64,000 nucleotides of DNA from Bacteroidota bacterium. GTDB lineage: Bacteria > Bacteroidota > Bacteroidia > B-17B0 > Aurantibacillaceae. This document shows, in pieces, positions 7,589 to 41,636 of this stretch. The stretch is taken from NCBI GenBank assembly GCA_030692515.1, contig JAUXZS010000061.1, forward strand, positions 62,001 to 126,000, given 5' to 3'. A program made the position numbers and the translations under genes. The notes under the pieces are model-generated. The model was given only the letters and a program-made list of their open reading frames with translations. It had not been told where the DNA came from and did no database searches. Numbering within the stretch: position 1 is the stretch's first letter; each line of letters starts with the position of its first letter.

Positions 7589-7651
7589 GGTCTCAAAGAT
7601 ATAAAATTTATCTTTACGAATATTGTTACATTAATTAATGCCTTTTTATAG

Positions 7652-7659
7652 TAAATTTG
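7652..7659 (+). promoter_or_regulatory. -7 element (TAAATTTG) upstream of purB
   Basis: TAAATTTG matches TAnnTTTG and lies 17 bp upstream of the purB ATG. The -33 element is not clear. Confidence 0.4.
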
Positions 7660-7676
7660 TTGTTTAATATTATTTT

Positions 7677-23973: not shown

Positions 23974-25269
23974 ATGGCTTCATCTAAAATCGTATTATTT
24001 AAAGGCAAGAAATTATCTGACGGTTCGAGGTTTGTTGCTTTGCGTTTAACTTTTGACCGAAAACATAAATTTGTTTTTATCGAGAACGTTTTTGAAAACC
24101 AGTGGGATGCAGCAAATAAGTTAGTCAACCGCTCCCACACGCATTATAAAAGAATTAATAACACCATCAAAGCTAAGGATGCTCTTGCTGCTGATTTGAT
24201 CCTTCAGTACGAATCTGGAAAAAGTGACTTAACACCCGAAAAAATTATAAATACTTTAAAGGATGTAAAAAGTTCGGAGACATTCTTTGATTTTTTTAGC
24301 GATTATGTTGAAGAAAAATTTAAGAAAAACCAAGATCATGAAGCTGCTTCTTTAGATGGCAAAGGGAAAAACATTTGGTCATTTTTTTATGACAAAGATT
24401 TTAATGCTGAATTTCCAAATTTAGAAAGAGAAAATGAAAAATCACTCTTTAGAAAAATAGTAAATAAGGATATTAAATTTACCTCCATTACACCCTCTTT
24501 TCTTAGGAATCTTGCTATTTATTTAGAAATAGAGAGCGAACACTCGGAAAGAAGTGTTTTTAATCACATGAATGTAATTAGGACGGTTTATAACAGAGCA
24601 ATTGAAGCTAAGGCTATTACAAGGGAAAACTATCCCTTTAGTGGAAAAAATGGCTACAAAATGCGTATGCCTGAAAGTCAAAAAATCGCATTGGAAGAAA
24701 ATGAGGTTTTAGCATTAGAAAAAGCAAAACTTAAAGAAAAAACTGATACGTGGATTCATGCAAAAAACTCTTGGATTTTATCTTTGTGTTGGGGCGGAGC
24801 AAGGATTAGCGATGTTCTTCAAACAAAGTGGGAACAAATTAATCCTGAATCGTTAACCTATGTTATGGGCAAAAATAATAAACCGGTAGAAGTTCCCCTT
24901 GTTGATCGGGCTAAAAAAATATTGAAATATTATGAAACATACAAAGATGAAAATAAGGGATATATTTTTCCTGAAATGAGCAAAGCAAATTTAGATGATC
25001 CAAAGGATATTAATATAAAACTAAAAAATGCAATCCGAATTTATAATGTATGGTTGAAAGAACTTGCAGAAGAAGCCGGGATCAAAAAAAGTTTAAATAA
25101 CCATCTTGCCCGTCATACTTTTGGAAATCTCTCAGGAGATAAAATACCAATTCAAACATTGCAGTTGATTTATAGACATTCAGATATTCAGACTACCATT
25201 AACTATCAAAGGCATTGGATGAATAAGCAAAAAGTGGGAGAGGCAGTAAAAACAGTTATGAATTTTTAA
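23974..25269 (+). CDS. tyrosine recombinase/integrase of the element
   Basis: 431 residues. An N-terminal Arm-binding-like domain (about 1-85) and a SAM-like core-binding domain (about 90-225) precede the catalytic domain. The catalytic residues are visible: Arg in GGARISDVLQ, Lys in GKNNKPVEVPL, HxxR in NHLARHTFG, His in YRHSD and the nucleophile Tyr in TTINYQRHW. It belongs to the Bacteroidota phage/ICE integrase group. It stands next to a tRNA-Met 3' half and points into the element, so it most likely carried out the integration. Confidence 0.92.
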   Translation: MASSKIVLFKGKKLSDGSRFVALRLTFDRKHKFVFIENVFENQWDAANKLVNRSHTHYKRINNTIKAKDALAADLILQYESGKSDLTPEKIINTLKDVKSSETFFDFFSDYVEEKFKKNQDHEAASLDGKGKNIWSFFYDKDFNAEFPNLERENEKSLFRKIVNKDIKFTSITPSFLRNLAIYLEIESEHSERSVFNHMNVIRTVYNRAIEAKAITRENYPFSGKNGYKMRMPESQKIALEENEVLALEKAKLKEKTDTWIHAKNSWILSLCWGGARISDVLQTKWEQINPESLTYVMGKNNKPVEVPLVDRAKKILKYYETYKDENKGYIFPEMSKANLDDPKDINIKLKNAIRIYNVWLKELAEEAGIKKSLNNHLARHTFGNLSGDKIPIQTLQLIYRHSDIQTTINYQRHWMNKQKVGEAVKTVMNF

Positions 25270-26392: not shown

Positions 26393-27592
26393 TTACATCT
26401 TTTTCATATCATGCCCTTCCATAGGATTCGTACCTTTCTTAAACATATATTCGCTGTTTAACAAATATGCTCCCGAAACAATTACAATGTCCCCTTTATT
26501 TAGCCCATGCAAAATTTCTGTATATCCATTGGCTTCAAGGCCGGTGTGAACCATCACACTTTTAAATTTGTTATGCCCTGTTTGTAGCCATACGGTAGAT
26601 CCTTTACCATCTTTGATTATCGCATCAGTTGGTAATGAAAGAGTGCTTTTCTGTTTAAGCAATAAACTCACGTATGCCTGCATTCCGGGCTTTATATCCA
26701 GATTAGCGTTTGGAATCTCTACCCTGATTATGTTGATCTTTGAAGACGGATTAAGTTCTGGATTTACAAAAGATAGTTGACCGGAAAATTCCTTTCCTGA
26801 AAAAGCAGGCAACATTACTTTTGCCTCCATTCCATTTTTAATTTCACTTATATAATCTGAATATACCTGGGCTTCCACCCATACAGTTGAGAAATCGGCT
26901 AAATGAAATACATCCCCTCCTTCCATTACATAATTCCCTTCTTTCGTATCAACGGAATAAACAACTCCATTGATCTTACTAAGAATTTTCACAGTATAAG
27001 GTTGTACCTTTTCATTTTCCATTTGCTTTATCTGTTCTTCCGTAAGTCCATATAATAGAAGTTTGTTTCTTGCACTTTGCAAAATTTTATCGTAATCTAT
27101 TTCAATGCTTTTTAATGATTTCTTTTTTTCAGTAGCGAGAAACATTTCCCGGATTATCATATTCAAGTCTTCGCTGTATATTTCATATAGCGGTTGGCCT
27201 TTTGATATAATATCCCCAGTAGTTTTAAAATATAATTTCTCTATTCTACCCATCACCCTTGAACTAATACTTGCAAGTGTATTTTGGTTGACATTAATAG
27301 TTCCGGTTAATAAAATATCTTCTCCGAGCAAATGTTCTTTGAGTGAATCGGTAGTGATATTTCCTAATTGAATTTGCTGGTCACTGAGTTGGAGTTCATT
27401 TTCATTTTTCATCTGCACTTTTTTTACTTCGGTCAGAGGCATTTTACAAATAGGACACTTACCGGGTTTTGATTCCACTACCTGCGGATCCATAGAACAG
27501 GTATAATACACATCGTTCGCTATTTTTTCTTCTTTTCTACCGCAGGAAATGAAGAAAAAAAGCAATAAAATATTTATAGTTCTTTTTAGCAT
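26393..27592 (-). CDS. CusB-like RND efflux adaptor with heavy-metal-binding domain (copy 2)
   Basis: 399 residues. A lipoprotein signal ends in FFFISCG. A heavy-metal-binding domain follows (YTCSMDPQVVESKPGKCPI, about residues 29-50), then HlyD-type barrel-sandwich and beta-barrel domains (MGRIEKLYFKTTGDIISKGQ). CusB-like adaptors join an inner-membrane RND pump to an outer-membrane channel and pass Cu(I)/Ag(I) to the pump. It is the last gene of the long minus-strand array, 1 bp after another adaptor gene. Confidence 0.88.
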   Translation of the reverse strand: MLKRTINILLLFFFISCGRKEEKIANDVYYTCSMDPQVVESKPGKCPICKMPLTEVKKVQMKNENELQLSDQQIQLGNITTDSLKEHLLGEDILLTGTINVNQNTLASISSRVMGRIEKLYFKTTGDIISKGQPLYEIYSEDLNMIIREMFLATEKKKSLKSIEIDYDKILQSARNKLLLYGLTEEQIKQMENEKVQPYTVKILSKINGVVYSVDTKEGNYVMEGGDVFHLADFSTVWVEAQVYSDYISEIKNGMEAKVMLPAFSGKEFSGQLSFVNPELNPSSKINIIRVEIPNANLDIKPGMQAYVSLLLKQKSTLSLPTDAIIKDGKGSTVWLQTGHNKFKSVMVHTGLEANGYTEILHGLNKGDIVIVSGAYLLNSEYMFKKGTNPMEGHDMKKM

Positions 27593-27593: not shown

Positions 27594-28859
27594 TTATTTA
27601 TTTTCTATTTTAATAAAACTTTCACTATCTATTAGCAATTGCCCATTCTGTGCAATCGTATCTTCCTTGTTAATCCCTGAAATAATTTCAACCCATTCAC
27701 CGGAAGGGATGCCTTTCTGTATTTTTCTTGTTTTGAACAAGCCATCCTGCTTTACGAAAACAATATTATTTAATCCTAAACTTACAATTGCAGTTGATGG
27801 AACAAACAATCCTTTTTGTTTCCTGTCATCTGATTTTGCTTTTACGATTGCCCCGATTTTTATTTCATTAAATGAATTATTCAAAAATACTCTTGCGGTT
27901 ACATTTTTTTGATTATCTCTGATAACCGGCTCAATAAAATCTATTGTAGCTTCCACTTCACGTTCTTTTAATCCATCTATTTCCAGTTTTATTTTTTGAC
28001 CTTTTTTGATGGAACTTTGAGCATCCGGGTAAATGTTCAGTAATGCCCATATTTTCTGTGTATCGTAAATATTGAAAATGGTTTGTCCTTTGGATATATA
28101 CATTCCTTCTTTTATCTGCAATCCCTCTGTTGTTAGATTGGAGGAAGCCATTCCATTTTTCATTCCTCCGGTATTATTTTCTATTGGAATTACATCATGT
28201 AAATGACCGGTATAAGGACTATAAATGGTTATCGTATAAAATATTTTATCTGATGACTTTACCTGACTGATTTGTTCAGTTGTTAATCCAAGCAGTGAAA
28301 GTTTTTGTTCGGAAGATTTTATCAAGGAAAGATTTTCCGAATCATTTTTCAAAAGAAAAAGTAAATTTTGTTGTTCTGTTTCCAGGTCTTTGCTATAAAT
28401 ATCCATTAGTTTTTGGCCTTTACTAACGGGCTGATACCTATATTTTACATAGAGCTTTTCGATTCTGCCGGGAACCCTAGCCGATACAGTGTTGATTTGT
28501 CTTGTATCGTAAGTAATATATCCCATAGCAAATATATTTGCAGACAATTCTTTCTCAACCGGACTTACTGTATTCACCTGACTGATTACATACCTATTGG
28601 TTGGTTTCAGTAATAGTTCTAACTCTTTATTACTTTCCTTTTTACCATCTGTTATTTTCTCCACCAGCTCCATTCCACAAATGGGGCATTGTCCGGGTTC
28701 ATTTCGGATTATTTGCGGGTGCATAGGACAAGTATATACTTTCTGTTCCTGCTGAGTTGAATGGTTTTTGTGCCCATTGTCGGACTTTTTCTCATTATTA
28801 TTGCAGGAGAATATCAACACAATAAGAAACATTAATAATATTTGATTTTTTATTTTCAT
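27594..28859 (-). CDS. CusB-like RND efflux adaptor with heavy-metal-binding domain (copy 1)
   Basis: 421 residues. Lipoprotein signal LIVLIFSCNNN, a His-rich linker (GHKNHSTQQ), and the metal-binding domain YTCPMHPQIIRNEPGQCPIC at about residues 42-61, followed by adaptor domains (VPGRIEKLYVKYRYQPVSKG). It differs clearly from the second adaptor, so this is an old duplication or a functional pair. Its start overlaps the end of the outer-membrane channel gene by 4 bp (ATGA). Confidence 0.88.
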   Translation of the reverse strand: MKIKNQILLMFLIVLIFSCNNNEKKSDNGHKNHSTQQEQKVYTCPMHPQIIRNEPGQCPICGMELVEKITDGKKESNKELELLLKPTNRYVISQVNTVSPVEKELSANIFAMGYITYDTRQINTVSARVPGRIEKLYVKYRYQPVSKGQKLMDIYSKDLETEQQNLLFLLKNDSENLSLIKSSEQKLSLLGLTTEQISQVKSSDKIFYTITIYSPYTGHLHDVIPIENNTGGMKNGMASSNLTTEGLQIKEGMYISKGQTIFNIYDTQKIWALLNIYPDAQSSIKKGQKIKLEIDGLKEREVEATIDFIEPVIRDNQKNVTARVFLNNSFNEIKIGAIVKAKSDDRKQKGLFVPSTAIVSLGLNNIVFVKQDGLFKTRKIQKGIPSGEWVEIISGINKEDTIAQNGQLLIDSESFIKIENK

Positions 28860-30124
28860 TTTATTTCCAATTGTTTTTCATATTGTACCTGAAGTTGCAG
28901 CAAGTCATTTAAAAGATCAAGGTATCCAAGCTGTGATACTTTTAAATTCTGCCATGCATCCAAAGCCATAAATAGTTCTTCTGTATTTTGCTCATACGCC
29001 AGCAGCGTAGCCTGATAATTTTTTCTCATGGAAGGGATAATGGTTTTTTCATAAAGGCTGATTTGCTGCTTTTTATTTTTGATCTGCGATTTTATGTTTT
29101 GAATAAATCCACTTGTATTATTGACTAATGCCTGCTGCTGATTTTTTACTGCTTCTATTTCATAGTTAAGTCCGGCTACTGAGGATTTATACATTTTGGA
29201 TGACCAGGGGGCAATGGGAATGGTCATCATGGCCATCAAACTGAATTGCTGTGGTTGTCTGCCGAAAGCCAACATGTGATCGTATTTCAATCCAAAGTCC
29301 GGTAATCGTTTGGAGTGTTCGTAAAGCTGTTTTGATTTGAGCAAATTGACATTTTGAGACAGTGCTTTATAATCACTGCGATTGGTTGCGATTATCGTTG
29401 TATCAGTGATGGACGTTTCATAATTCTTCAAAACAAAAGTGCTGTCAATATCAAATTCCAACTCTTTGTTTCGGATCATCAATGTGTTTAACTCTATCAT
29501 CTTCTGCCTTATTTCTGTTTCCGTCATAATCTTCATCTGTTGTATATCTCCCAACATGGCTTTAGCCTTGTAATAAGCATTGAGCTTATCCATTCCATAG
29601 GTGTAACGGATTTCGGTCGATTGGATGATATAGCTTAAAAGCTCCTCGCTTTCATTCAGTATTTTTAATTTTTTCTTCATCACTTGCCATTCAGAAAAAC
29701 TCATCTTCGCCATGCTGAACATTTCATTTTTTGTTGCCCCCTTCATTTCTTTTTCCACGTTTGACATACTTTGCATGTAAGTGGAATTGGCATTTAGCTT
29801 TTTAGGATTTGAAAACATTTGCTGGGCAGATATCATAAATGAACCCATTCCATCGCTCATTCCATCAGGTTTCCACATTTGCGTATTATAAGGTGTCATA
29901 AAAAAGCCTGCTCCTGCCTGTGGAGGCTCAAGGGATTTTGCTCCTTTTGCATAGGCATTGTAAGCGTTAATCTGTGCATCGTACATTTTCAGCTCAGGAT
30001 GATTTTTTTCGATAGCATTTAAAACGCTGTCAATCGTTAAAACCTGGGCAGAGATTTTTTGAGAATAAAAAGGTAAACTCAAAACAACGACTATTCCGAT
30101 AATTATTTCTTTTGCTTTAAACAT
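28856..30124 (-). CDS. TolC/CusC-like outer membrane efflux channel
   Basis: 422 residues with a signal peptide (cleavage near SAQ) and two long helical regions typical of the outer membrane efflux protein family. The segment IEKNHPELKMYDAQINAYN opens the first repeat, and a second heptad-rich region is around 340-420. Trimeric channels of this kind complete RND pumps across the outer membrane. It lies between the CusA-like genes and the adaptor genes. Confidence 0.85.
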   Translation of the reverse strand: MFKAKEIIIGIVVVLSLPFYSQKISAQVLTIDSVLNAIEKNHPELKMYDAQINAYNAYAKGAKSLEPPQAGAGFFMTPYNTQMWKPDGMSDGMGSFMISAQQMFSNPKKLNANSTYMQSMSNVEKEMKGATKNEMFSMAKMSFSEWQVMKKKLKILNESEELLSYIIQSTEIRYTYGMDKLNAYYKAKAMLGDIQQMKIMTETEIRQKMIELNTLMIRNKELEFDIDSTFVLKNYETSITDTTIIATNRSDYKALSQNVNLLKSKQLYEHSKRLPDFGLKYDHMLAFGRQPQQFSLMAMMTIPIAPWSSKMYKSSVAGLNYEIEAVKNQQQALVNNTSGFIQNIKSQIKNKKQQISLYEKTIIPSMRKNYQATLLAYEQNTEELFMALDAWQNLKVSQLGYLDLLNDLLQLQVQYEKQLEIK

Positions 30125-30178: not shown

Positions 30179-32074
30179 TTAATCTTCAAATTCCTGTACT
30201 ATTAACTTTCCATGTTTTCTTAATTCGTACTCTCTAACCAAAGCATATAAAACCGGCAATACGATAAGTACAAACAAGGTGGACGTAATCAACCCGAAAA
30301 CAAAAGGAATGGTTATAGGCTTCATTACATCGCTTCCTGTTCCGGTAGCCAGCAAAACAGGCATTAAGCCAATAATGTCCACCAGCACTGTCATCAATTT
30401 CGGCCTCAATCTTAAAGCCGCTCCGTCATATATCGCATCTTCTATATCCTGCTCTGTCATTGACTTGTTTTCAGTTTTATTCTTGTTCACCTTTTTTAAA
30501 ACCGAGTTGTTCATGTAAACCAGCATCAGCACTCCTGTTTCAACTGCAACACCAAACAGTGCAATAAAGCCAACTGCAACGGCCACAGAAAAATTCACTC
30601 CAAAGAAATGCAGTGAATACGCACCACCGACCAAAGCGACCGGAACGGCAGAAAGTACAATTAATACTTCACGGAAGGTGTGAAATGTAAAATACAGGAT
30701 CACCATAATAATCACTAATACAATGGGAATAATCATTTTTAATCTTTCGTTTGCCCGTACCTGGTTTTCATATTGTCCACTCCAGGATAAAAAATATCCT
30801 TGCGGTAGTTTCTTTACAGCTTCTTCCAACTTCTTTTTGGCATCGTTTACTGTGCTTCCCAAATCTCGTTCACGCACATTAAATAAAAGAGTTCCCCTCA
30901 GCATCGCATTTTCGGAACTTATCATGGGAGGACCTTCTGTAATATTAATATCTGCAACAGCAGAAAGCGGTATGGGGCCATAATCCATTGTTTGCAATTG
31001 CATACGTTTTAGTTTATCAATCTTATCACGGAAATCCTGTGCGAAGCGTACATTGACAGTAAAACGCTGTCTTCCCTCAATGGTTGTGGTTACATTCATT
31101 CCACCGAGAGCTGTTTCAATGAACATATTTACATCATCAACAGAAAGCCCATATCTGCCTATTTCATCCTTTCTTACCTTCATTTCAATGTATTTGCCCC
31201 CTACAATTGGCTCCACATACAAATCTTTCACTCCTTCCACACCTTCGAGTTCCTTTTTAAACTGTTGAGCCAGCTTATTGATGGTGTCAAGATTTTGCCC
31301 ATATACTTTAATTCCCACATCTGTTCTTATTCCGGTGGAGAGCATATTGATACGGTTAATAATGGGTTGTGTCCATCCATTAATAACACCTGGTATTTGC
31401 ATCTTGGAATTTAACTCGTTGATAATATCGTTCTTGGACAAGCCCTCTCTCCATTCGGATTGTGGTTTTAATAAAATGATAGTTTCAATCATGCTGATGG
31501 GTGCATTGTCGGTAGCGGTATTGGCTCGTCCGGCTTTTCCAAGTACGTTTTGCACTTCAGGAATTGTCATAATTAATTTATCCTGCACTTGCATGATGCG
31601 TTTGATTTCAGAGTTAGAAACATCAGGCAAAGTAACAGGCATAAAAAGAAGGGAGCCTTCATCCAACGGTGGCATAAATTCAGTTCCGAGATTAAGCACC
31701 AAAGGAACGCTGCCTAATACCAAAGCAAGGCTTAATGCAAGGGTTGTTTTCTTCCACTTCAAACACCAACGAATTACCGGATTGTACATCCAAAGGAAAA
31801 ATCTTGAAACAGGGTGTTTGCTTTCAGGCCGTACATTTCCTTTCAGAAACATGGTCATAAGTACAGGCACAAGGAATATGGCTACAAAAGCAGAGCCAAT
31901 CATAGCAAAAGTTTTAGTCCATACTAAAGGCGAAAACAGTTTGTGTTCCTGCCCTGTCAGAAAAAGGATGGGACTGAATGACACAAGTGTAATCAGTATG
32001 GAGTTAAATACAGCTTTCCCAATCAGCTTGGATGAAGCCTCAATTTTCTTTTCTCTTTCTTCGTTTGATAACAT
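30179..32074 (-). CDS. CusA-like RND transporter, C-terminal part (split gene)
   Basis: 631 residues covering TM5 to TM12 and the second periplasmic half of a CusA/CzcA protein (LVSFSPILFLTGQEHKLFSP at the start; TGIRTDVGIKVYG and VAVAVGFIALFGVAVETGVL further on). A complete homologue would have about 1040 residues. It is in frame with the N-terminal part, separated only by one TAA and 60 nt. The ATG at 32074 could restart translation. If both parts are made, they would meet in the cytoplasmic loop after TM4. Confidence 0.85.
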   Translation of the reverse strand: MLSNEEREKKIEASSKLIGKAVFNSILITLVSFSPILFLTGQEHKLFSPLVWTKTFAMIGSAFVAIFLVPVLMTMFLKGNVRPESKHPVSRFFLWMYNPVIRWCLKWKKTTLALSLALVLGSVPLVLNLGTEFMPPLDEGSLLFMPVTLPDVSNSEIKRIMQVQDKLIMTIPEVQNVLGKAGRANTATDNAPISMIETIILLKPQSEWREGLSKNDIINELNSKMQIPGVINGWTQPIINRINMLSTGIRTDVGIKVYGQNLDTINKLAQQFKKELEGVEGVKDLYVEPIVGGKYIEMKVRKDEIGRYGLSVDDVNMFIETALGGMNVTTTIEGRQRFTVNVRFAQDFRDKIDKLKRMQLQTMDYGPIPLSAVADINITEGPPMISSENAMLRGTLLFNVRERDLGSTVNDAKKKLEEAVKKLPQGYFLSWSGQYENQVRANERLKMIIPIVLVIIMVILYFTFHTFREVLIVLSAVPVALVGGAYSLHFFGVNFSVAVAVGFIALFGVAVETGVLMLVYMNNSVLKKVNKNKTENKSMTEQDIEDAIYDGAALRLRPKLMTVLVDIIGLMPVLLATGTGSDVMKPITIPFVFGLITSTLFVLIVLPVLYALVREYELRKHGKLIVQEFED

Positions 32075-32137
32075 ATTTATTTTTTTATCAAGTTTAACTC
32101 TCCCTCTCCTTTGGTGAGGGTTGGGGTGAGGCTTTTA
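32074..32137 (-). repeat. stop codon and GC-rich insert splitting cusA
   Basis: On the minus strand the N-terminal part ends GATGATTAA, followed by 60 nt that include cctcaccccaaccctcacc and aaggagagggag, the type of short GC-rich repeat scattered in many Bacteroidota genomes. The 60 nt keep the reading frame and contain no further in-frame stop before ATG at 32074. An insertion of this repeat into an intact cusA explains the split. Confidence 0.65.
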
Positions 32138-33397
32138 ATCATCTTCACCACTTATTGACTTCATTGCATTCTCCACCATCACAATTCCTGCATCCACCAA
32201 ATCACCCACTGCCAAAGCTACTCCAGCCAATGACATAATGTTGGAAGTAATCCCGAACCAGCTCATCATAATAAATGAAATCAGTACGGACATGGGGATA
32301 GTGATAATAACGATCAAGGCACTTCTGACATGAAGCAGAAATATGAGCAGAACAATGGCCACTACTATAATTTCTTCTATTACAGCATCTTTCAGTGTCG
32401 CTATGGTATCATCAATCAGGTTTGAACGGTCATAAGCTACTTTGAACTTTACTCCCGGTGGCAGCCCTTTTTCAATAGCAGGTAGTTTTTCTTTAATCCG
32501 TTCAATTACGTCTTTAGCATTTTCTCCATAACGCATTACAACAATTCCGCCCACTTTTTCTCCGCCACCATTTTCATCAATAATTCCAAGCCTGAGTTCT
32601 CCTCCCATCTGAACGGCTGCAACATCTTTTACCCTCACCGGAACAGAGTTGTTTGTTTTAAGTGGAATATTCTCAATTTCTCTTATGTCTTTGATATATC
32701 CCATCCCTTTTATGATATAGCCAATATCCGATTGCTCAAACTTTCTGCCTCCTACATCATTATTGTTTGCTTTTATTTTTTGAGCAACATCCATTAATGG
32801 AATATCATAATAGCGAAGTTTATAGGGGTCAACTACCACCTGGTATTGACGTTGAAAACCACCGAAAGAAGCCACTTCACTCACGCCTTCCACTGTCTGT
32901 AAAGCAAAACGGACATACCAATCCTGTAATGCACGAAGTTCTCCTAGGTCATAACCGGGAGCATCCAATGTGTACCAGTAAATATGTCCTAATCCTGTTC
33001 CATCCGGGCCAAGTGTGGGAGTGATTCCTTGCGGAAGTAAACGCTGTGCATAATTCAATCGTTCAAGTACTCTTGTCCTTGCCCAATAAATATCCACATC
33101 ATCATTAAAAATTACGAATACAAAACTCATCCCGAACATACTGTTCGCGCGGATGTTTTTTATTTTTGGAATGCCCTGAAGATTACTGACTAATGGGTAA
33201 GTAATTTGGTCTTCAATAATCTGCGGATTACGTCCCATCCATTCCGTAAAGATAATCACCTGGTTTTCTGATAAATCAGGTATGGCATCAACGGGAGTGT
33301 TCTTCACTGCATAAATACCATAAGCAATAACTGCCGCTGAAATAAGCAGTACAATAATGCGGTTTTTAAGCGCCCAGGTAATGAAACTATTTATCAT
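32135..33397 (-). CDS. CusA-like RND transporter, N-terminal part (split gene)
   Basis: 420 residues: TM1 with the first periplasmic porter region (TPVDAIPDLSENQVIIFTEW), TM2, TM3 and TM4 carrying the proton-relay Asp motif AVGDLVDAGIVMVENAMK near residue 400. It ends soon after TM4 with SISGEDD. Its ATG overlaps the stop of the polyphosphate kinase gene by 4 bp. Substrate by family: Cu(I)/Ag(I) or divalent metals. Whether the split pump works is open. Confidence 0.87.
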   Translation of the reverse strand: MINSFITWALKNRIIVLLISAAVIAYGIYAVKNTPVDAIPDLSENQVIIFTEWMGRNPQIIEDQITYPLVSNLQGIPKIKNIRANSMFGMSFVFVIFNDDVDIYWARTRVLERLNYAQRLLPQGITPTLGPDGTGLGHIYWYTLDAPGYDLGELRALQDWYVRFALQTVEGVSEVASFGGFQRQYQVVVDPYKLRYYDIPLMDVAQKIKANNNDVGGRKFEQSDIGYIIKGMGYIKDIREIENIPLKTNNSVPVRVKDVAAVQMGGELRLGIIDENGGGEKVGGIVVMRYGENAKDVIERIKEKLPAIEKGLPPGVKFKVAYDRSNLIDDTIATLKDAVIEEIIVVAIVLLIFLLHVRSALIVIITIPMSVLISFIMMSWFGITSNIMSLAGVALAVGDLVDAGIVMVENAMKSISGEDD

Positions 33398-34140
33398 TTC
33401 GTCTTATTTGGATATTTTAAATTCAATTGTTTTAACTGCTTGACTATGATGGAGGCTACAACATAGTTCCTGTACCATTTATTATCAGCAGGAACTATTA
33501 CCCAAGGTATTTCATGGCTGCAACGATTTAATATCTGTTCATATACCTGAGTGTAGCTTTTCCATTTTTTAGAGGATTTAATATCATCCTCCGAATACTT
33601 CCATTTTTTTATCGGGTCTGTAAGCCTTTCCTGTATTCTTTTCTTCTGTTCATTTTCGCTTATGTGTAAAAAGAATTTTAGAAGCAGAGTTTTGTTATCC
33701 AGTAAATGATGCTCAAAAGCATTAATGAAATCATAACGTTTTTCAATGACTTGTTGGGGCAACGTTTTTTGAATTGTTGGAACCAATATATCTTCATAGT
33801 GTGAGCGATTGAAAATCTGTATCATTCCTTTTTCAGGAAGTTTTTGAAAAATACGCCACATATAATCATGCTCCAGTTCCATATCACATGGCGCTTTGAA
33901 AGATGTTGCATGAACTCCAAGCGGGTTGACATGGGAAAAGACCTGCCGGATGGTACTGTCCTTACCGGAAGTATCTATGCCTTGAAAAATTATTAAAAGG
34001 CTGTATGCGTGTGATGCGTAAAATAAATGTTGTAAAGTGAATAACTCTTTGTGAAGTTTATCCAATTCACGCTTATAGGCTACCTTATCAATTTTTTCAG
34101 GAGCCTGGGTATTAATATTATTAAGTTTTATTTTACTCAT
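33394..34140 (-). CDS. ppk2: polyphosphate kinase 2 family protein
   Basis: 248 residues. Walker A-like IFQGIDTSGKDSTIRQVF near residue 51, the Walker B region with FNRSHYEDILVPT, and the late conserved ADNKWYRNYVV. PPK2 enzymes transfer phosphate from polyphosphate to nucleotides and so regenerate ATP or GTP. The gene overlaps both neighbours by 4 bp (DUF4010 gene upstream, cusA part downstream), which points to tight coupling in the operon. Confidence 0.9.
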   Translation of the reverse strand: MSKIKLNNINTQAPEKIDKVAYKRELDKLHKELFTLQHLFYASHAYSLLIIFQGIDTSGKDSTIRQVFSHVNPLGVHATSFKAPCDMELEHDYMWRIFQKLPEKGMIQIFNRSHYEDILVPTIQKTLPQQVIEKRYDFINAFEHHLLDNKTLLLKFFLHISENEQKKRIQERLTDPIKKWKYSEDDIKSSKKWKSYTQVYEQILNRCSHEIPWVIVPADNKWYRNYVVASIIVKQLKQLNLKYPNKTK

Positions 34141-35417
34141 GTGTTTGTTTTTAAATAAATACCTGCTATTCCTAACAGAGCTATAATAATAGATGGTATC
34201 AGTCCAATCAGTACTTTCTTTCTTAGTTCTTTGGATCCCTTAAAATAAGTTTCACCTATTTTGAAAATAGTATTACTCAATACTGCGATTAGAATTACAA
34301 TGGCAGCCATTGAAGAATTAATTTGAACTAAACTAAGTTTCGACATGGATATATTAATGGCATCTACATCTGCAAGACCGGAAATAAACCCGGTAATAAG
34401 TAATCCTTTCGTTCCAAAGTAAATATTGGCATAATAGACAAATAGGGTAATACCTACGTATTGAATGCCAAACAAAATAGCATTAGTTACATCAAGTGGA
34501 TTTCCCAATTGAATTGAGGCAGGTGTTGTTAGGGATGCTGTTTTTCTCTTTAGAATGTAAGCTATAATGGAGTTACTTACTATCATTAAAGAACAGGGGA
34601 TCAGGAGCCATCGGAATACTGAAATGTTAAATAATCCGGCAACCACTAATACACGGGCAAACATCACAGCACAGGCAATTATAATCCCGGTTGCATATTG
34701 TGTTGATAGATTTTCGTTTTCTTTGCTTCGATTACTGAAAACCCATGTTACTGCCGTACTTGAAAATGTACCGCCAAAGAAGGCAGTAAACAGTATCCCT
34801 TTTTCTGCACCGAAGAACTTGATTATAAAGTATCCGATAAAACTTAGTGATGATACAATAACTATAACAAAACCTATACTTCTTGGATTGATTATTTCGC
34901 CTGGCCCATAATTTTTATCAGGCAAAAAAGGCAAAAGTAAAAGAGAAAGAATAATGAATTTAATAAAAGCAAATAATTCATCCTGAGTAATGCGACTAAG
35001 TGTTTCACGGAACTTAGTTTTGAGTGTTAAAAGGGTAGAGACAATTACGGCTACTGCTAAGGCTTCTTTAATATAGTGAAGACCGGAAAGAACCCCAAGA
35101 AAAAACACCAGTGCCAGCGACAATTCCGTTACTATCCCAAAATTTCCCTTTTGAATTTTTGAGTAGTGAAATACGCTGATGAAAATAAATATCGCAGGTG
35201 AAACCACTAATAAGAGATTTACATTGAATTGCTCTGCCAAAAAAGTAACAATACATCCCAACATTGACATGATTGCAAACCCCCGCATTCCTGCAAAGTG
35301 TTCCTTGCCGGACAGGTTTTCAAATTCCCGCTCCATACCCACAATTAACCCTATACCCAAAGCCACAATCAGGCTGAGTAAAAAAGGTGTGAGTAGGTTC
35401 ATTAATAAATCGTGCAT
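34137..35417 (-). CDS. MgtC/DUF4010 family membrane protein
   Basis: 426 residues. The N-terminal half has an MgtC-like domain (GIGLIVGMEREFENLSG, then AGMRGFAIMSMLGC), and the C-terminal half fits DUF4010 with about six more membrane helices. The function of the family is not established; MgtC relatives are linked to magnesium limitation and ATP synthase control. It follows pfkA by 4 bp and overlaps ppk2 by 4 bp. Confidence 0.82.
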   Translation of the reverse strand: MHDLLMNLLTPFLLSLIVALGIGLIVGMEREFENLSGKEHFAGMRGFAIMSMLGCIVTFLAEQFNVNLLLVVSPAIFIFISVFHYSKIQKGNFGIVTELSLALVFFLGVLSGLHYIKEALAVAVIVSTLLTLKTKFRETLSRITQDELFAFIKFIILSLLLLPFLPDKNYGPGEIINPRSIGFVIVIVSSLSFIGYFIIKFFGAEKGILFTAFFGGTFSSTAVTWVFSNRSKENENLSTQYATGIIIACAVMFARVLVVAGLFNISVFRWLLIPCSLMIVSNSIIAYILKRKTASLTTPASIQLGNPLDVTNAILFGIQYVGITLFVYYANIYFGTKGLLITGFISGLADVDAINISMSKLSLVQINSSMAAIVILIAVLSNTIFKIGETYFKGSKELRKKVLIGLIPSIIIALLGIAGIYLKTNT

Positions 35418-35421
35418 GTTA

Positions 35422-36417
35422 TTAGCTCGTTAAAGTTATTATCATTTTCAATAAATTATCATTGATGTCTAAATGATGTCGTTTTACTTTTTGTAAAGGA
35501 GTAAAATGTATTTCATTTCTTTTTATCCCGACCATAACATTCCTTTTTCCCTTCAACAATCCTTCAATTGCCTCAAATCCAAGTTTTGAGGCTAAAATTC
35601 TATCGGCAGCAGAAGGGCTTCCTCCTCGTTGTATGTGCCCTAAAATGCAAACTCCTACATAGTGTGAGGGCATATACTTTTTAACATCATCAGCTACTTT
35701 TAAAGCTCCACCGCTTTCATCTCCCTCTGCAACAACAATTATCAATGAGGATTTATTTCTATTCCAACCATGCCTAAGAACCTCTTTTAGATTTTTATCA
35801 TCCGCTTTTGTTTCAGGAACCAAAATGGCTTCAGCACCTCCTGCAAGACCTGCTCCATAAGCTATGTACCCCGAATCTCTGCCCATTACTTCCACTATAA
35901 AAATTCGTTCGTGAGATTGAGCCGTATCTCTTATTTTATCTATTGCCTGAGTAGCTGTATTGAGAGCAGTATCGTAACCGATACACACATCCGTACCGAA
36001 AATATCATTATCAATTGTTTTAGGAATGCCAATAAAAGGAATGTCATGTTCTTTGGTAAATGTTTTTGCTCCTTCAAAAGACCCGTCTCCGCCAATTAAA
36101 ATAATAGCATCAATATTTTCCTTTTTAATTTTTTTATATGCCATTAATCTTCCTTCTTTGGTTTTAAACCGTTCGCTCCTGGAGGATTTAAGTATTGTGC
36201 CTCCCAATTGAATGATGTTACTCACAGTATTTGCATTCATTGGAATAAAATCGCCTGAAATCAAACCCTCAAAGCCATGTTGAATCCCTACAATTTTTAA
36301 TTTATTAAAAATTGCTGTTCTTACTACAGCTCTTATACAGGCATTCAATCCGGGAGCATCCCCACCCGATGTCATTACAGCAATTTTTTTTATTTTTTTA
36401 TTTTCTGATTTAGCCAT
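35422..36417 (-). CDS. pfkA: ATP-dependent 6-phosphofructokinase
   Basis: 331 residues, usual bacterial length. Motifs: MTSGGDAPGLNACIRAVVR at the nucleotide site, LIGGDGSFEGAKTF, the catalytic PKTIDNDIFGTD, and GRDSGYIAYGAGLAGGAEA. Gly in GGDGS instead of GGDDS suits ATP-using enzymes. It phosphorylates fructose 6-phosphate in glycolysis. It is in the metal-efflux array, 6 bp after a small membrane protein gene, which is unusual for a housekeeping enzyme. Confidence 0.92.
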   Translation of the reverse strand: MAKSENKKIKKIAVMTSGGDAPGLNACIRAVVRTAIFNKLKIVGIQHGFEGLISGDFIPMNANTVSNIIQLGGTILKSSRSERFKTKEGRLMAYKKIKKENIDAIILIGGDGSFEGAKTFTKEHDIPFIGIPKTIDNDIFGTDVCIGYDTALNTATQAIDKIRDTAQSHERIFIVEVMGRDSGYIAYGAGLAGGAEAILVPETKADDKNLKEVLRHGWNRNKSSLIIVVAEGDESGGALKVADDVKKYMPSHYVGVCILGHIQRGGSPSAADRILASKLGFEAIEGLLKGKRNVMVGIKRNEIHFTPLQKVKRHHLDINDNLLKMIITLTS

Positions 36418-36423
36418 CGTCTT

Positions 36424-37005
36424 TTAATAAGTAAAGAATTTAATTTCGGATAAAGTCATTTTTGAATAAAAGTCAAGTTCTTTTTTTGTTTCCTTTGAAG
36501 AATACACCAAGTGGTCAAGCCCTGCCCACAATAAAAACCAACCTGCCGGTTCAAACAACACAAGCACTAAATGCACATGATATTTTTCCGGTTTCATAAA
36601 AGAAATATAGCTCGCTGCAATCATTATGGCAATTCCAACTAATGTCAAAATCAATCCTCTTGAATTTGTTTTTCTTACCTCGGTTCCCAATTGCTCATGA
36701 ACGCTTTTAAAATAAGAGTGCAGTCTTTTAATAATCACCTTTTCTTCCTGTTCATTTCGTTTATTTGCAGGTAAAAGAAGCCTTAACGACATTTTTTTGT
36801 TTCCGCTTTTATTCCTGGAAAATTTTTTAGTCTGTATAATAAAGTCATCTGACATTGTTCTTTCAGAATACGCACTTGGATCAAAATCAGAAAAAATATC
36901 ATCGTAAGAATCAAGCAAAATGCTAACCTCGGCAAGCTCAAGTAATGATTGCTTTGGCACTGTGTTTAGCTTCTCTTCCTGCTTATGTTTATTCAATGAT
37001 TCCAT
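36424..37005 (-). CDS. small membrane protein of unknown function
   Basis: 193 residues. The N-terminal about 110 residues are charged and soluble; two membrane helices follow (about 116-136 and 143-165), then a short cytoplasmic tail. No family is recognised. It lies between the lactate dehydrogenase gene (9 bp) and pfkA (6 bp) in the long array, so it is probably made with them. Confidence 0.6.
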   Translation of the reverse strand: MESLNKHKQEEKLNTVPKQSLLELAEVSILLDSYDDIFSDFDPSAYSERTMSDDFIIQTKKFSRNKSGNKKMSLRLLLPANKRNEQEEKVIIKRLHSYFKSVHEQLGTEVRKTNSRGLILTLVGIAIMIAASYISFMKPEKYHVHLVLVLFEPAGWFLLWAGLDHLVYSSKETKKELDFYSKMTLSEIKFFTY

Positions 37006-37014
37006 TATGCACCT

Positions 37015-38001
37015 TTATATTTCATTTTTGTTGCTAATAGCTTTTTCAAAACAATCCAAATTGTAAAGGGTTGTTTCTGCAATATTTTTTAATGCTGTGT
37101 CTGTCAAAAAGGCTTGGTGGCTGGTTATTAAAACATTATTAAATGTCATCAATCTGGCAATCATATCATCTTGTAAAATTTCTTCGGAACGATCTTCAAA
37201 GAACAAACCGCTTTCTTCTTCATAAACATCTATTCCTAAATACCCAATTTGACCAGCTTTAAGAGCTTCTATTACTTCCTTAGTATTAACCAATGCTCCC
37301 CGGCTTGTGTTAATCAGCATTACGCCTCGTTTCATTTTTGAAATACAATTTTTGTCAATTAAATATTTTGTTTCAAGTGTCAAAGGAATATGGAGAGTTA
37401 TTATATCTGATTCTCTGCATAATGTTTCGCAATCCGTGTATATCGCACCGTATTTATTTTTCAATTCATCATTCTCAATTTTATCATGTACAAGAATGCG
37501 ACAACCGAATCCGTGCATTATCCTGGCGACAACACTCCCGATTTTTCCAGTACCGATAATCCCAACTGTTTTCCCGTGCATATCAAATCCGACTAATCCG
37601 TCCAATGAAAAGTTTTGCTCCATGACCCTGTTATGGGCACGTATTAGTTTGCGGTTTAATCCCAACATAAGAGCGACAGCATGTTCCGCAACTGCATAAG
37701 GAGAATATTCCGGAACACGGGCTACTTTTATATTCAGTCTTTTAGCTTCCGCAAGATCCACATGGTTATAACCAGCAGAACGAAGTGCAAGAAATTTAAC
37801 TCCTGCCTTGCTTAAAATTTGAAGTACAGGAGCAGAAGCGTTGTCACTCACGAAGACAGAAACAACCTCGTTTCCTTCCGCAAGAGAGGCAGTTTCAATA
37901 GTAAGCGGACTGCTGATGTATTTTACATCATGTTTTCCGCTGAAAACTTCCTCCAGGTATGCTCTTTCAAATTTGTGCGTACTATATATAGCTACTTTCA
38001 T
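37015..38001 (-). CDS. ldhA: D-lactate dehydrogenase-like 2-hydroxyacid dehydrogenase
   Basis: 328 residues from the ATG at 38001 (MKVAIYSTHKFERAYL); an upstream in-frame ATG would add 41 residues that overlap the preceding gene and match no family. NAD-binding GKTVGIIGTGKIGS is near residue 145, with NTSRGALVN and the catalytic His in SHQAFLTDTAL. The resemblance to E. coli LdhA runs along the whole length. It reduces pyruvate to D-lactate and reoxidises NADH in fermentation. Confidence 0.88.
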   Translation of the reverse strand: MKVAIYSTHKFERAYLEEVFSGKHDVKYISSPLTIETASLAEGNEVVSVFVSDNASAPVLQILSKAGVKFLALRSAGYNHVDLAEAKRLNIKVARVPEYSPYAVAEHAVALMLGLNRKLIRAHNRVMEQNFSLDGLVGFDMHGKTVGIIGTGKIGSVVARIMHGFGCRILVHDKIENDELKNKYGAIYTDCETLCRESDIITLHIPLTLETKYLIDKNCISKMKRGVMLINTSRGALVNTKEVIEALKAGQIGYLGIDVYEEESGLFFEDRSEEILQDDMIARLMTFNNVLITSHQAFLTDTALKNIAETTLYNLDCFEKAISNKNEI

Positions 38002-38011
38002 TGGGATGATT

Positions 38012-38641
38012 TTATTTTTTCGGACGTTTATGTTCTTTAACAGGTTTAACCGGATAATTGTCAAGAATATCATATACAGCAGGATGCAGGTTGTCTCCGA
38101 TATAAGAAGGGTCGTATAAATCACCTTTAGCGGTTCCGCTCCATACCAGCTTATTCAGTTTCCTGTCAATTATATTCAGCGTGATTGCTCCTTCTGTATA
38201 TTCTACCTTTTGAGTTACATAAGTAGTATAGTTGTAATTATAGTTGTAGCGGTAATAATAAGTGCTTGGATAAGGGTAATAATAGGGGTTGTGGTAATAC
38301 CAGTTGGAAGGATAAGTGGAAACAGGAGTTGTAACTGTTTTTTGCTTTTTAGCAGCTGTAATTACTAAGTCAAGAAATACATCCGGTGTATCAATGCTTG
38401 CCTTATATCCTCTTTCTCCCATACAATGAGTGAAATAGTTGCGGGTATTGTTGCGAATAATCTGGTTGTTATATTCGCTTTTGGACGTGTCTTTATCCGG
38501 CAGCCATGCAAACGTTTTATATTTTGTAAAATCAACGCTCCGGTCATAATCGGAAGTGATGTCGGTATATACTCCGCATCCGGCAATAGCCAGGAAAAGA
38601 ATACCAGTTAAATAGGAAAATAATTTTGTATGTGTTTTCAT
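38012..38641 (-). CDS. DUF4136 lipoprotein
   Basis: 209 residues. The lipobox is in FLAIAGCGVYTD, and DYDRSVDFTKYKTFAW opens the DUF4136 domain. The middle is tyrosine-rich (YYHNPYYYPYPSTYYYRY). The family is envelope-localised and of unknown function. It stands between a YceI-like secreted protein gene and ldhA in the array. Confidence 0.8.
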   Translation of the reverse strand: MKTHTKLFSYLTGILFLAIAGCGVYTDITSDYDRSVDFTKYKTFAWLPDKDTSKSEYNNQIIRNNTRNYFTHCMGERGYKASIDTPDVFLDLVITAAKKQKTVTTPVSTYPSNWYYHNPYYYPYPSTYYYRYNYNYNYTTYVTQKVEYTEGAITLNIIDRKLNKLVWSGTAKGDLYDPSYIGDNLHPAVYDILDNYPVKPVKEHKRPKK

Positions 38642-38662
38642 TTTTTTAAAAGATTTGATTAA

Positions 38663-39214
38663 TTATTGGTTTGGTTTTTTAAGCACTGCCTGAGCAATTT
38701 GTATTGTTATTTCGTTGTTCCATCCTTCCGGCAAAATGATTTCAAAATCGCTTAGCCCTAATTTAAAGTTGAGTGTAAGCAAACAGGAAATAGTTCCATT
38801 GCTGGCAATGTGTTTAAGCTCTCCTGTTACATACATTGATTTTACGATACCATTCAAATGCAGCTCTGCTTCAAAATTTAATTTATGGTCAGGATGCTTT
38901 AGCGTATTTACATAGGGTATATTCAGTTTTCCTTTCAGGGTTGCAGGCCCTATGGATGAATTAAGAAGTTTTACATTCAATGAATCTGTTGTAGTACGTA
39001 AAGTAGCCGGATAAAGCGTTAATTCGATTTCCGCAGTTTCATAATTGATTAAAGCAAACAACTGATTGCTATTGGCAATTGTTTTAGCATCCTTGTACAA
39101 GCCAATCACACCAATACTTCCTTCCCTGGTTTGATATATTTGTTGTGCCTTACCTGAAAGGCTGCATAATAATACTAATGCGCTTACCAATATTGTTTTA
39201 AAATTTTTTATCAT
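38663..39214 (-). CDS. secreted YceI-like protein
   Basis: 183 residues from ATG 39214; a start 24 nt upstream overlaps ppsA and gives a poorer signal peptide. The signal peptide MIKNFKTILVSALVLLCSLS precedes a beta-rich domain resembling the YceI lipocalin-like fold. YceI proteins bind polyisoprenoids; the ligand here is unknown. It follows ppsA by 7 bp. Confidence 0.65.
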   Translation of the reverse strand: MIKNFKTILVSALVLLCSLSGKAQQIYQTREGSIGVIGLYKDAKTIANSNQLFALINYETAEIELTLYPATLRTTTDSLNVKLLNSSIGPATLKGKLNIPYVNTLKHPDHKLNFEAELHLNGIVKSMYVTGELKHIASNGTISCLLTLNFKLGLSDFEIILPEGWNNEITIQIAQAVLKKPNQ

Positions 39215-39221
39215 TGTCTTT

Positions 39222-41636
39222 TTAATTATCAGATACATTGATTTGTAATTGTATTTCTGAATTTGAAATATTCTCTATTCCTTTTAAAAGTGCATCGGGG
39301 TTAAAGGAAATGCTGTCAATGCCGCATTCTACAAGAAATTTTGCGTATTCAGGATAATCGCTTGGAGCCTGGCCACATAAGCCGATTTTAATTCCTGCTG
39401 CTTTTGCTTTTTCAATAGACATACTGATAAGCTGCATCACAGCCGGATCAAAAGGACTGAAAATATCACTTAGTAATGTGGAATCACGATCAGCGCCCAA
39501 TGTAAGCTGAGTAAGGTCGTTAGAGCCAATGGAAAATCCATCAAAGTGTTTTGCAAATTCTCCAGCTAATAAAGCATTGCTTGGAATTTCAACCATCATG
39601 TATAATTCCAACGAATCTTTTCCTCTTTCCAAGCCATACTCTTTCATAAGTCCGCTTACTTTTTTCGCCTCGTCCACAGTGCGACAAAAAGGGATCATCA
39701 GCTTTACGTTTGTAAACCCCATTTCTTCCCGCACCAATTTCATCGCTTTACACTCCATTTCAAAACCTTCTTTGTAAAGTGGATGATAGTATCGTGAAGC
39801 TCCCCTGAAACCTATCATCGGGTTTTCTTCATTCGGCTCAAATTGTTTACCGCCAATGAGATTAGCATATTCATTGGATTTAAAATCGCTCATGCGAACA
39901 ATCACATCTTTTGGATAAAAGGCTGCTGCAATAAAACTGGTGGCTTCAGCAAGGCGATGAATAAAATAATCTCTTTTATCAGAGTATTGATGTGTTCTTT
40001 TTTCTATAAGTTCCCTAACTTTTTCATCTGTTATTTTTTCAAAATGCTGCAATGCCATTGGATGAATACCGATGGCATTATTGATAATGAACTCCATTCT
40101 CATTAATCCAACTCCATTATTTGGAAGAAAGGAATACTTAAACGCCTGTTCAGGATGACCTAAAATGAGCATTGCTTTAGTATCCGGCATTTTAATGTGG
40201 CTGATGTCGGTTGTTTTTTCTTCCCACTCCAGTTTTCCTTCGTACACATAACCGGTATCACCCTCCGCAGCAGAAACCGTGATTATCTGACCATCTTTAA
40301 TTGTACTTGTAGCATTGCCTGCTCCAACAATAGCTATTGCACCCACCTCCCGTGCAACAATAGCAGCATGGGAAGTTCGTCCGCCCTGGTCGGTTATAAT
40401 AGCCGTTGCCTTTTTTAATACCGGATCCCAATCGGGGTCGGTACGTTCAGTAACTAATATTTCTCCGTCATTCAATTTTGAAATTTCAGACGGAGAATGA
40501 AGTATTCTTGCTTTACCCGATGCAATGCGGTTCCCAAGCCCAACGCCTTTACAAAGCACTTTGCCTTTTTCTTTTAAAGTATATTGTTTGAATAAATTTT
40601 TGTTTTTATTACTGTGAACAGTTTCCGGCCTGGCTTGAACTATATATAGCTTTCCATTTCCACCATCTTTTGCCCATTCAATATCCATGTGGCATTTGTA
40701 ATGCTCCTGAATTTTACAAGCCCAATCAGCTAATTGAATTATTTCCTTATCCTCCAAAACAAACTGCTCCTGCTTTTCAACAGAGGTATCTAAATTTATT
40801 ACAGCATCCTCCGGTTTTAAAATTTCGTTTTCACTTTTTGTTGAGTAAATCATTGTTTTCATTTTACTGCCCAGCTTGTGAGAAATAATCGGTTGATTAA
40901 CCTTGCCCAACAAAGGCTTAAAAACAAGAAACTCATCTGTATTTACACTTCCCTGTACCACATTTTCACCCAATCCCCATGCTCCAGAAACCAATACTAC
41001 ATTTTCAAAACCTGAATCGGGATCCATTGTAAACATCACACCTGAACTGGCTAAACCAGAACGAACCATTACTTGTACGCCAATGGACAAGGCAACTTTC
41101 ATGTGTTCAAAACCATTGTCAACCCTGTATTTTATTGCTCTATCAGTAAAAAGAGAAGCATAACAACGCTGACATGCTTTTATCAAATTTTCTTCGCCTT
41201 TAACATTCAGGTATGTTTCCTGCTGACCCGCAAAACTTGCGTTGGGTAAGTCTTCCGCTGTTGCGCTGCTACGAACTGCAAGAGAAATATTATTGCCTGA
41301 ACGCTCACATAATTGCTTATACGCTATGATAATTTCATCTTTTAATTCTTTTGGAAAGGATGCTTTAAGCAAAATATTTCTTGCTTTAGAACCAATATCA
41401 GACAGGTTATTAAATGTTTTACTATCAAGTTGTGAAAGTAGAGTAGTCAGTTGTGGAACGATTTTATTATGATCCAGGAAATTCCAATACCCCTCAGATG
41501 TAACAGCAAATCCATCCGGTACTCGAATACCTTTTGATGAAAGTGAGCTGAACATTTCGCCAAGTGAAGCATTTTTGCCTCCAACAAGGGGAAGGTCTTT
41601 AAGTCGTATTTCAGAAAAGTTTTTTATTGATTTCAT
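39222..41636 (-). CDS. ppsA: phosphoenolpyruvate synthase
   Basis: 804 residues, close to the known length of about 790. The N-terminal ATP-grasp domain has GGKNASLGEMFSSL and AVRSSATAEDLPNASFAGQQ; the phosphohistidine domain has TDQGGRTSHAAIVAREVG with the catalytic His; the C-terminal PEP-binding barrel ends in GLCGQAPSDYPEYAKFL. It makes PEP from pyruvate and ATP. It lies between gpmA and the YceI-like gene in the array. Confidence 0.94.
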   Translation of the reverse strand: MKSIKNFSEIRLKDLPLVGGKNASLGEMFSSLSSKGIRVPDGFAVTSEGYWNFLDHNKIVPQLTTLLSQLDSKTFNNLSDIGSKARNILLKASFPKELKDEIIIAYKQLCERSGNNISLAVRSSATAEDLPNASFAGQQETYLNVKGEENLIKACQRCYASLFTDRAIKYRVDNGFEHMKVALSIGVQVMVRSGLASSGVMFTMDPDSGFENVVLVSGAWGLGENVVQGSVNTDEFLVFKPLLGKVNQPIISHKLGSKMKTMIYSTKSENEILKPEDAVINLDTSVEKQEQFVLEDKEIIQLADWACKIQEHYKCHMDIEWAKDGGNGKLYIVQARPETVHSNKNKNLFKQYTLKEKGKVLCKGVGLGNRIASGKARILHSPSEISKLNDGEILVTERTDPDWDPVLKKATAIITDQGGRTSHAAIVAREVGAIAIVGAGNATSTIKDGQIITVSAAEGDTGYVYEGKLEWEEKTTDISHIKMPDTKAMLILGHPEQAFKYSFLPNNGVGLMRMEFIINNAIGIHPMALQHFEKITDEKVRELIEKRTHQYSDKRDYFIHRLAEATSFIAAAFYPKDVIVRMSDFKSNEYANLIGGKQFEPNEENPMIGFRGASRYYHPLYKEGFEMECKAMKLVREEMGFTNVKLMIPFCRTVDEAKKVSGLMKEYGLERGKDSLELYMMVEIPSNALLAGEFAKHFDGFSIGSNDLTQLTLGADRDSTLLSDIFSPFDPAVMQLISMSIEKAKAAGIKIGLCGQAPSDYPEYAKFLVECGIDSISFNPDALLKGIENISNSEIQLQINVSDN

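What the first reader, a model, noticed from the sequence alone, without database searches (positions are those of the whole stretch)
30179..33397. CusA pump split by one in-frame stop at a short GC-rich repeat
The two parts are in frame, separated by TAA plus 60 nt that contain cctcaccccaaccctcacc. The break is in the cytoplasmic loop after TM4, a natural joint, and the second part has its own ATG. It may be a working two-piece pump, a stop read-through case, or a recent pseudogene.
Basis: seen in the sequence. Interest (0 to 1): 0.65.

Follow-up and report, generated by a model that had tools for sequence, protein, structure and literature searches.

The report
Two-gene copper pump in Bacteroidota
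What looked like a copper-export pump gene broken by a stop signal is one example of a long-conserved design in which the pump is encoded as two separate proteins, shared by many bacteria of one phylum.

Summary
In detail: on the minus strand a CusA-like RND pump is encoded as a 420-aa N-part (32135-33397), TAA, a 60-nt spacer and a 631-aa C-part (30179-32074). The stop is not recent damage. Homologues across Bacteroidota are cut in the same TM4-TM5 loop. Of 80 relatives kept from one scan, 70 have adjacent N and C genes, 2 have genes between them, 3 have the order reversed (C first), 3 are fused and 2 end at a contig end. In 80 of 100 distinct split copies C is in another frame than N, so read-through cannot be the general mechanism. 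Both parts evolve under strong purifying selection. The relay aspartate is on N and the three-methionine metal site on C; all four residues are kept in 108 of 108 rows. The tree gives one fission and three later re-fusions. The GC-rich repeat is a dispersed palindrome; of the 100 split copies only the window has it at the junction. Most likely two separately made chains assemble into one Cu(I)/Ag(I) pump; assembly and transport are inferred. The listings of nine literature searches showed no description. New variant of a known kind.

The parts
32135..33397 (-). CusA N-part, 420 aa: TM1-TM4 and first periplasmic domain (TM labels recalled); carries the equivalent of CusA Asp405 (N-part D402). 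Its ATG overlaps the end of the upstream PPK2 gene by 4 nt
32075..32134 (-). 60-nt spacer between the TAA of the N-part and the ATG of the C-part, open in the N frame
32100..32133 (-). Copy of a dispersed palindromic (REP-like) repeat, consensus CTCACCCCnnCCCTCTCCaaaGGAGAGGG; among 100 distinct split copies only the window has it at the junction
   Evidence: weak hairpin, z -1.2
30179..32074 (-). CusA C-part, 631 aa: TM5-TM12 and second periplasmic domain (TM labels recalled); carries equivalents of Met573, Met623, Met672, Glu939, Lys984
28856..30124 (-). Outer-membrane factor (CusC/TolC-like, Pfam OEP)
27594..28859 (-). Periplasmic adaptor 1 (CusB-like)
26393..27592 (-). Periplasmic adaptor 2 (CusB-like)

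Best explanation
It is a naturally two-gene CusA: a copper/silver RND permease whose reading frame was cut once, long ago, in the cytoplasmic TM4-TM5 loop in Bacteroidota. The N-part (TM1-4 plus first periplasmic domain) and C-part (TM5-12 plus second periplasmic domain) are translated as separate polypeptides, usually from overlapping or nearly touching cistrons. They assemble in the inner membrane into one RND protomer, three of which would form the pump (N3C3) with the CusB-like adaptors and CusC-like channel encoded downstream. Shown here: conserved two-ORF architecture, variety of frame and gene order, purifying selection, conserved functional residues divided between the two chains, matching divergence of the halves, one fission with later re-fusions. 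Inferred: both chains are made, translation is coupled, they assemble, and the assembly pumps Cu(I)/Ag(I). The palindromic repeat in this genome's spacer is a later passenger.
For: Same cut in relatives without the repeat. Phylum survey of 395 genomes: 24 genomes (29 listed loci) have an N-part frame of 422-475 aa; every listed match of 61% identity or more is of this kind. 80 named loci: 70 adjacent split, 2 with genes between, 3 reversed order, 3 fused, 2 at a contig end. Two more reversed loci, G278 and G294. Order C-OMF-adaptor-adaptor-HMBD-N read out in L184. Frames: 80 of 100 out of frame; the first usable ATG overlaps the N stop in 36 and lies 0-15 nt beyond it in 56 of 100. Equivalents of Asp405, Met573, Met623, Met672 in 108 of 108 rows. 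dN/dS 0.011-0.051 in 14 of 26 half-gene comparisons, the other 12 having saturated dS. C-parts are 613-637 aa in 104 of 108 rows. Distance matrices of the halves agree, r 0.94 over 103 rows, 0 of 1000 permutations as high; in 4 of 4 two-copy loci tested each half groups with its own copy type. Tree: one clade, fewest changes 4; AU test rejects a clade of the split rows alone, p 0.0001. The window's tail plus head (9+15 aa) equals the 24-aa loop of four fused relatives. Two complete plasmid records are annotated with two consecutive CDS.
Against: No expression or transport data. E939 is Q in 3 of 105 rows and K984 is L or V in 8 of 104 rows that have a residue there, so some subclades may work differently. 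The copy in G071 (L013) has a frameshifted, internally deleted C-part. 18 of 100 split copies, the window included, are in frame with a single stop, so read-through in those is not excluded. Agreement of distances is also expected from shared descent in one operon; only 62 of 103 rows have the same nearest neighbour in N and C. The AlphaFold2 model of the joined chain had low confidence and gives no support.
Confidence: 0.9

Rival explanations
1. Recent pseudogene: a stop or repeat insertion has just broken a normal cusA.
For: A stop and a dispersed repeat do lie in the middle of the frame; one relative (G071, L013) has a damaged C-part.
Against: Adjacent split genes in 70 of 80 related loci, and the repeat at the junction in only the window among 100 distinct split copies; dN/dS 0.011-0.051 in both halves where measurable; C-part length 613-637 aa in 104 of 108 rows; one clade with loci assigned to six NCBI classes.
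Confidence: 0.02
2. Programmed stop read-through or re-coding makes a full-length CusA.
For: In the window and 17 other copies of 100, N and C are in one frame with a single TAA.
Against: 80 of 100 copies are out of frame and 36 of 100 overlap; 5 loci have C upstream of N; spacer sequence and length vary widely.
Confidence: 0.03
3. Sequencing or assembly error created the stop.
For: No raw reads could be examined.
Against: Many independent genomes and two complete plasmid records (Runella, Haliscomenobacter) have the same two-gene structure.
Confidence: 0.01
4. The halves are made separately but are no longer one pump: each has its own new role.
For: Gene order can be reversed and genes can sit between the halves; some rows lack the K984 equivalent.
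Against: Residues of one proton relay are divided between the chains and kept in most rows; divergence of the halves matches; three lineages re-fused them.
Confidence: 0.04

Closest known systems
E. coli CusA (HME-RND Cu(I)/Ag(I) permease; PDB 3k07, 3t51, 4dnr)
   Same: The two parts together cover nearly the whole chain; metal methionines and relay residues conserved; encoded beside CusB-like and CusC-like genes
   Different: CusA is one polypeptide; here it is two, cut in the TM4-TM5 loop
SecD/SecF (RND superfamily; passages of PMC8277102)
   Same: RND-fold membrane protein that can be made as two chains (heterodimeric 2 x 6 TM set-up)
   Different: Cut between the two 6-TM repeats; here the cut is 4 + 8 TM, inside the first repeat, in a permease of a tripartite efflux pump
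MdtB/MdtC heterotrimer (PMC8277102 passage)
   Same: RND pump needing two different gene products
   Different: Each of those is a complete 12-TM permease (recalled); here each is a fragment
REP / REPIN palindromic repeats (abstracts in the search listing)
   Same: Short dispersed GC-rich palindrome
   Different: No transposase link tested; REPs are described there as high-copy, whereas this genome has 2 matches and two further weaker ones

Membership tests
HME-RND / CusA (TIGR00914, PF00873) | Full-length RND permease profile | tested here: met
   N and C together cover TIGR00914 1-422 and 432-1039, but each part alone is below the curated cut-off of 701 bits, at 464 and 618; PF00873 2-414 and 418-1021, both above its cut-off
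HME-RND / CusA (TIGR00914, PF00873) | Three-methionine metal site (Met573, Met623, Met672) | tested here: met
   108 of 108 ingroup rows (104 with separate parts, 4 fused), window included; residue names recalled, positions
HME-RND / CusA (TIGR00914, PF00873) | Proton-relay residues Asp405, Glu939, Lys984 | tested here: met
   All three in the window; over the rows D 108/108, E 102/105, K 96/104
HME-RND / CusA (TIGR00914, PF00873) | Single polypeptide of about 1000-1100 aa | tested here: not met
   Two ORFs, 420 and 631 aa; hence 'variant', not an ordinary member
HME-RND / CusA (TIGR00914, PF00873) | Adaptor and outer-membrane channel genes in the operon | tested here: met
   Two CusB-like adaptors and an OEP protein downstream on the same strand
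HME-RND / CusA (TIGR00914, PF00873) | Homotrimeric pump exporting Cu(I)/Ag(I) | not testable with these tools
   Needs biochemistry
Stop-codon read-through gene | Downstream part in frame and spacer conserved among relatives | tested here: not met
   80 of 100 out of frame; reversed order in 5 loci
Pseudogene | Relaxed selection or further lesions | tested here: not met
   dN/dS 0.011-0.051 where measurable; C-part 613-637 aa in 104 of 108 rows; the 4 short ones are three at the end of the stretch held (L143, L145, L079) and one frameshifted copy (L013)
REP/RAYT element (spacer repeat) | Dispersed palindrome with a cognate TnpA-REP transposase | tested here: inconclusive
   Dispersed palindrome shown; transposase not searched

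The most novel reading that the evidence does not exclude
A phylum-wide obligate two-chain RND pump in which the cut is put to use: assembly of the N and C chains (with lengthened tails and heads in many lineages, and in some with a heavy-metal-binding protein gene between or beside them) is a control point for switching copper/silver export on, giving an N3C3 heterohexamer whose halves can be dosed, reordered or exchanged independently.
Probability: 0.2. Interest if true: 0.8.

Novelty: new variant of a known kind. Interest (0 to 1): 0.6.

Why it matters
RND permeases of tripartite pumps are known as single-chain, 12-TM proteins (established knowledge, recalled). A natural fission inside the first repeat, kept across many lineages, with reversed gene order in some and three re-fusions, indicates that the fold tolerates two-chain assembly in vivo. 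It would offer a ready-made split pump for studying insertion, assembly and proton coupling: the relay Asp is on one chain, the relay Glu and Lys on the other. It also suggests that automatic annotation, which scores each half below the CusA family cut-off, may under-report copper/silver pumps in Bacteroidota.

Tried and rejected
Considered and rejected: the repeat as cause of the split; read-through as the general mechanism; pseudogene; split as a feature of one genome. Considered: independent fissions in several lineages; the tree needs only four changes, read as one fission and three re-fusions because the outgroups are fused; a count of changes alone cannot tell gain from loss.

Led nowhere: AlphaFold2 on the window gene read through its stop, aligned with three fused relatives, gave mean pLDDT 44.9, too poor to use; no fold search was made. 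RNA folding of the junction was unremarkable (z -1.8 and -1.2). Literature: nine searches of a library of openly licensed PMC papers. I saw only the listed top rows with abstract starts (for example 20 of 70, 20 of 366, 15 of 69 and 10 of 328 papers), plus passages of PMC4446572 and PMC8277102. No listed title or abstract start or passage described a split CusA; one search concerned REP elements, and one search found 0 papers.

Rows dropped: one search dropped 4 short rows (L131 second copy, L137, L164, L199) and duplicate rows; L176 and L192 (no C-part, contig end) never entered. One row (second L108 row, labelled permuted) was an artefact pairing a 39% paralogue with another gene's C-part; with it one search counted 5 changes; it was left out. 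One search was thinned to 50 rows with L013, L143, L079 and L145 barred as partial or frameshifted. G314 (N-part at a contig end) was not counted as split.

Full report
WHAT IS THERE. On the minus strand two ORFs follow each other: 33397-32135 (420 aa) and 32074-30179 (631 aa), separated by TAA and a 60-nt spacer that stays open in frame. Together they cover one heavy-metal RND permease: TIGR00914 1-422 and 432-1039, Pfam ACR_tran 2-414 and 418-1021. In phmmer against solved structures the best matches are E. coli CusA: N-part residues 3-415 to chain 10-425 (E 9.6e-126), C-part 2-614 to chain 437-1046 (E 3.4e-168). The chain numbering looks like native plus 7 (my inference). The 11 chain residues between lie in the loop between TM4 and TM5 (TM labels recalled). 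Upstream lies a PPK2 gene overlapping the N-part by 4 nt; downstream an outer-membrane factor and two CusB-like adaptors.

THE REPEAT IS A PASSENGER. The nearest homologues found in the family (71-75% DNA identity) end the N-part at the same place with TAA and begin the C-part in the same context, without the repeat: spacers of 24, 24, 25 and 9 nt. Among 100 distinct split copies only the window has a match to the repeat (up to 4 mismatches) near the junction. The consensus CTCACCCCnnCCCTCTCCaaaGGAGAGGG gave 36 matches (up to 2 mismatches) in 13 of 87 genomes of the family, 2 of them in this genome, and none for the reversed-pattern control. The window's copy differs from the pattern by one base. 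It is a REP-like dispersed palindrome; whether a transposase moves it was not tested.

THE SPLIT IS OLD AND WIDESPREAD. In a survey of 395 genomes of the phylum with the N-part as query (the table of matches was cut), 155 had a match at E 1e-120 or better. In 24 genomes (29 listed loci) the open frame is only 422-475 aa. Every listed match of 61% identity or more is of this kind; at 60% one is split (G208) and one fused (G392, 1081 aa). The listed matches below 60% have frames of 797-1777 aa, except G093 (57%, 426 aa, split) and G314 (57%, 426 aa, cut by a contig end, not counted). In the family, 11 of 87 genomes match; by frame length 10 are split and 1 (G032) is fused. The 75 loci with separate parts are all Bacteroidota by their record titles: 60 fall in six NCBI classes and 15 have no class given. 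The two oddly titled MAGs, 'Actinomycetota' L159 and 'Ignavibacteria' L176, are among the fused and undecided loci. The plasmid collection holds 185 matching records at E 1e-100; 14 lie in the 60-80% band, and the 13 of these that I saw listed (60.8-68.3%) are all Bacteroidota by name, as I know the genera. I looked at two of them: on Runella pRUNSL02 and Haliscomenobacter pHALHY01 two consecutive 'efflux RND transporter permease subunit' genes are annotated.

SEPARATE POLYPEPTIDES. Among 100 distinct split copies, C is out of frame with N in 80. The first in-frame ATG (not more than 30 nt before the end of the N stop) overlaps the N stop in 36, lies 0-15 nt beyond it in 56, farther in 7, and is missing in 1; stops are TAA 70, TGA 27, TAG 3. 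18 copies, the window included, could be read through one stop. Five loci have the reverse order: L181, L184 and L199, and G278 and G294, where C lies upstream of N on the same strand of the same contig. In L184 the run is C (719-2617), an outer-membrane factor and an adaptor (by sequence likeness), a CusB-like adaptor, a heavy-metal-binding (HMBD) protein, then N (6998-8275). In L177 and L191 an HMBD protein is encoded between N and C, and in G457 about 620 nt lie between. Read-through cannot join the parts in the out-of-frame and reversed loci.

STILL ONE MACHINE. Equivalents of Asp405 (on N) and Met573, Met623, Met672 (on C) are present in 108 of 108 ingroup rows (104 with separate parts, 4 fused); Glu939 in 102 of 105 and Lys984 in 96 of 104 with a residue there. 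The exceptions are Q in L119, L177, L191; L in L084, L101, L158, L175, L185; V in L142, L161, L182. Residue names are recalled from the CusA literature. dN/dS (NG86) was 0.011-0.051 in 14 of 26 half-gene comparisons (13 pairs, one of them a fused pair); in the other 12 synonymous sites were saturated. Between the window and six relatives dN is 0.047-0.128. C-parts are 613-637 aa in 104 of 108 rows; three of the four short ones reach the end of the stretch held, and one (L013) is frameshifted. N and C distance matrices agree (r 0.94, 103 rows, 0 of 1000 permutations as high), though only 62 of 103 rows have the same single nearest neighbour in both; in 4 of 4 two-copy loci tested the halves keep to their own type. 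Distance agreement is also expected from shared descent in one operon, so it supports but does not prove assembly.

HISTORY. All split rows and four fused ones form one clade (SH-aLRT 100, 99) whose neighbours are fused. The fewest changes are four (five, which still held an artefact row): with fused outgroups, one fission and three re-fusions (L132; L115 from G032; L152 with L159). A tree holding the 37 rows with separate parts together without the fused ones is rejected (AU p 0.0001; the group was set by gene state, the test run after the first trees). In the 50-row tree the four reversed-order rows form one clade. The window's N-tail plus C-head (9 + 15 aa) equals the 24-aa loop of fused relatives L108-L111; the median sum over 96 split copies is 43 aa, so many lineages have longer ends.

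MECHANISM. Most likely the two cistrons are translated one after the other by coupling, inserted separately (both new ends would be cytoplasmic, so topology is unaffected) and assembled into one protomer, three of which form the pump. Shown: sequence, order, selection, residues. Inferred: coupling, assembly, transport. A joined-chain AlphaFold2 model was too poor to help.

NOVELTY. The listings of nine searches in an openly licensed PMC library (capped lists) showed nothing on a split CusA; most subscription papers and all preprints of bioRxiv are outside it. SecD/SecF is the nearest precedent for a two-chain RND protein (passages), cut at a different joint.

Noticed in passing
window 32100-32133, and G000:C41:120049-120077 (L212): Dispersed REP-like palindrome (CTCACCCCnnCCCTCTCCaaaGGAGAGGG), up to 10 matches per genome in the family (G066).
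   Followed up: partly
L133, L134, L135, L084 (and by N-part L131): Two different types of split CusA (37-39% apart in N, 42-48% in C) sit in the same locus; each type keeps its own N and C partner.
   Followed up: partly
L084, L101, L158, L175, L185, L142, L161, L182: Split CusA copies with L or V in place of the relay lysine (K984 of CusA); L119, L177, L191 have Q for E939. Possible change of energy coupling or substrate.
   Followed up: no
L013 (G071:C53): A close relative's C-part is frameshifted and lacks about 77 residues: local decay or an assembly fault.
   Followed up: no
L113 (G353:C33), TM4-TM5 loop: A fused relative has a short in-frame insert (LPAGKQG) in the same loop that is cut in the split clade; it may be a translated repeat.
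   Followed up: no
window 33394-41636: PPK2, MgtC/DUF4010, phosphofructokinase, 2-hydroxyacid dehydrogenase, DUF4136 and PEP-synthase-like genes directly upstream of the pump on the same strand.
   Followed up: partly
window 23974-25269: Tyrosine integrase about 1.1 kb beyond the end of the efflux operon; an annotated tyrosine recombinase also lies near the split genes on Runella plasmid pRUNSL02 (L207). Suggests mobility.
   Followed up: no
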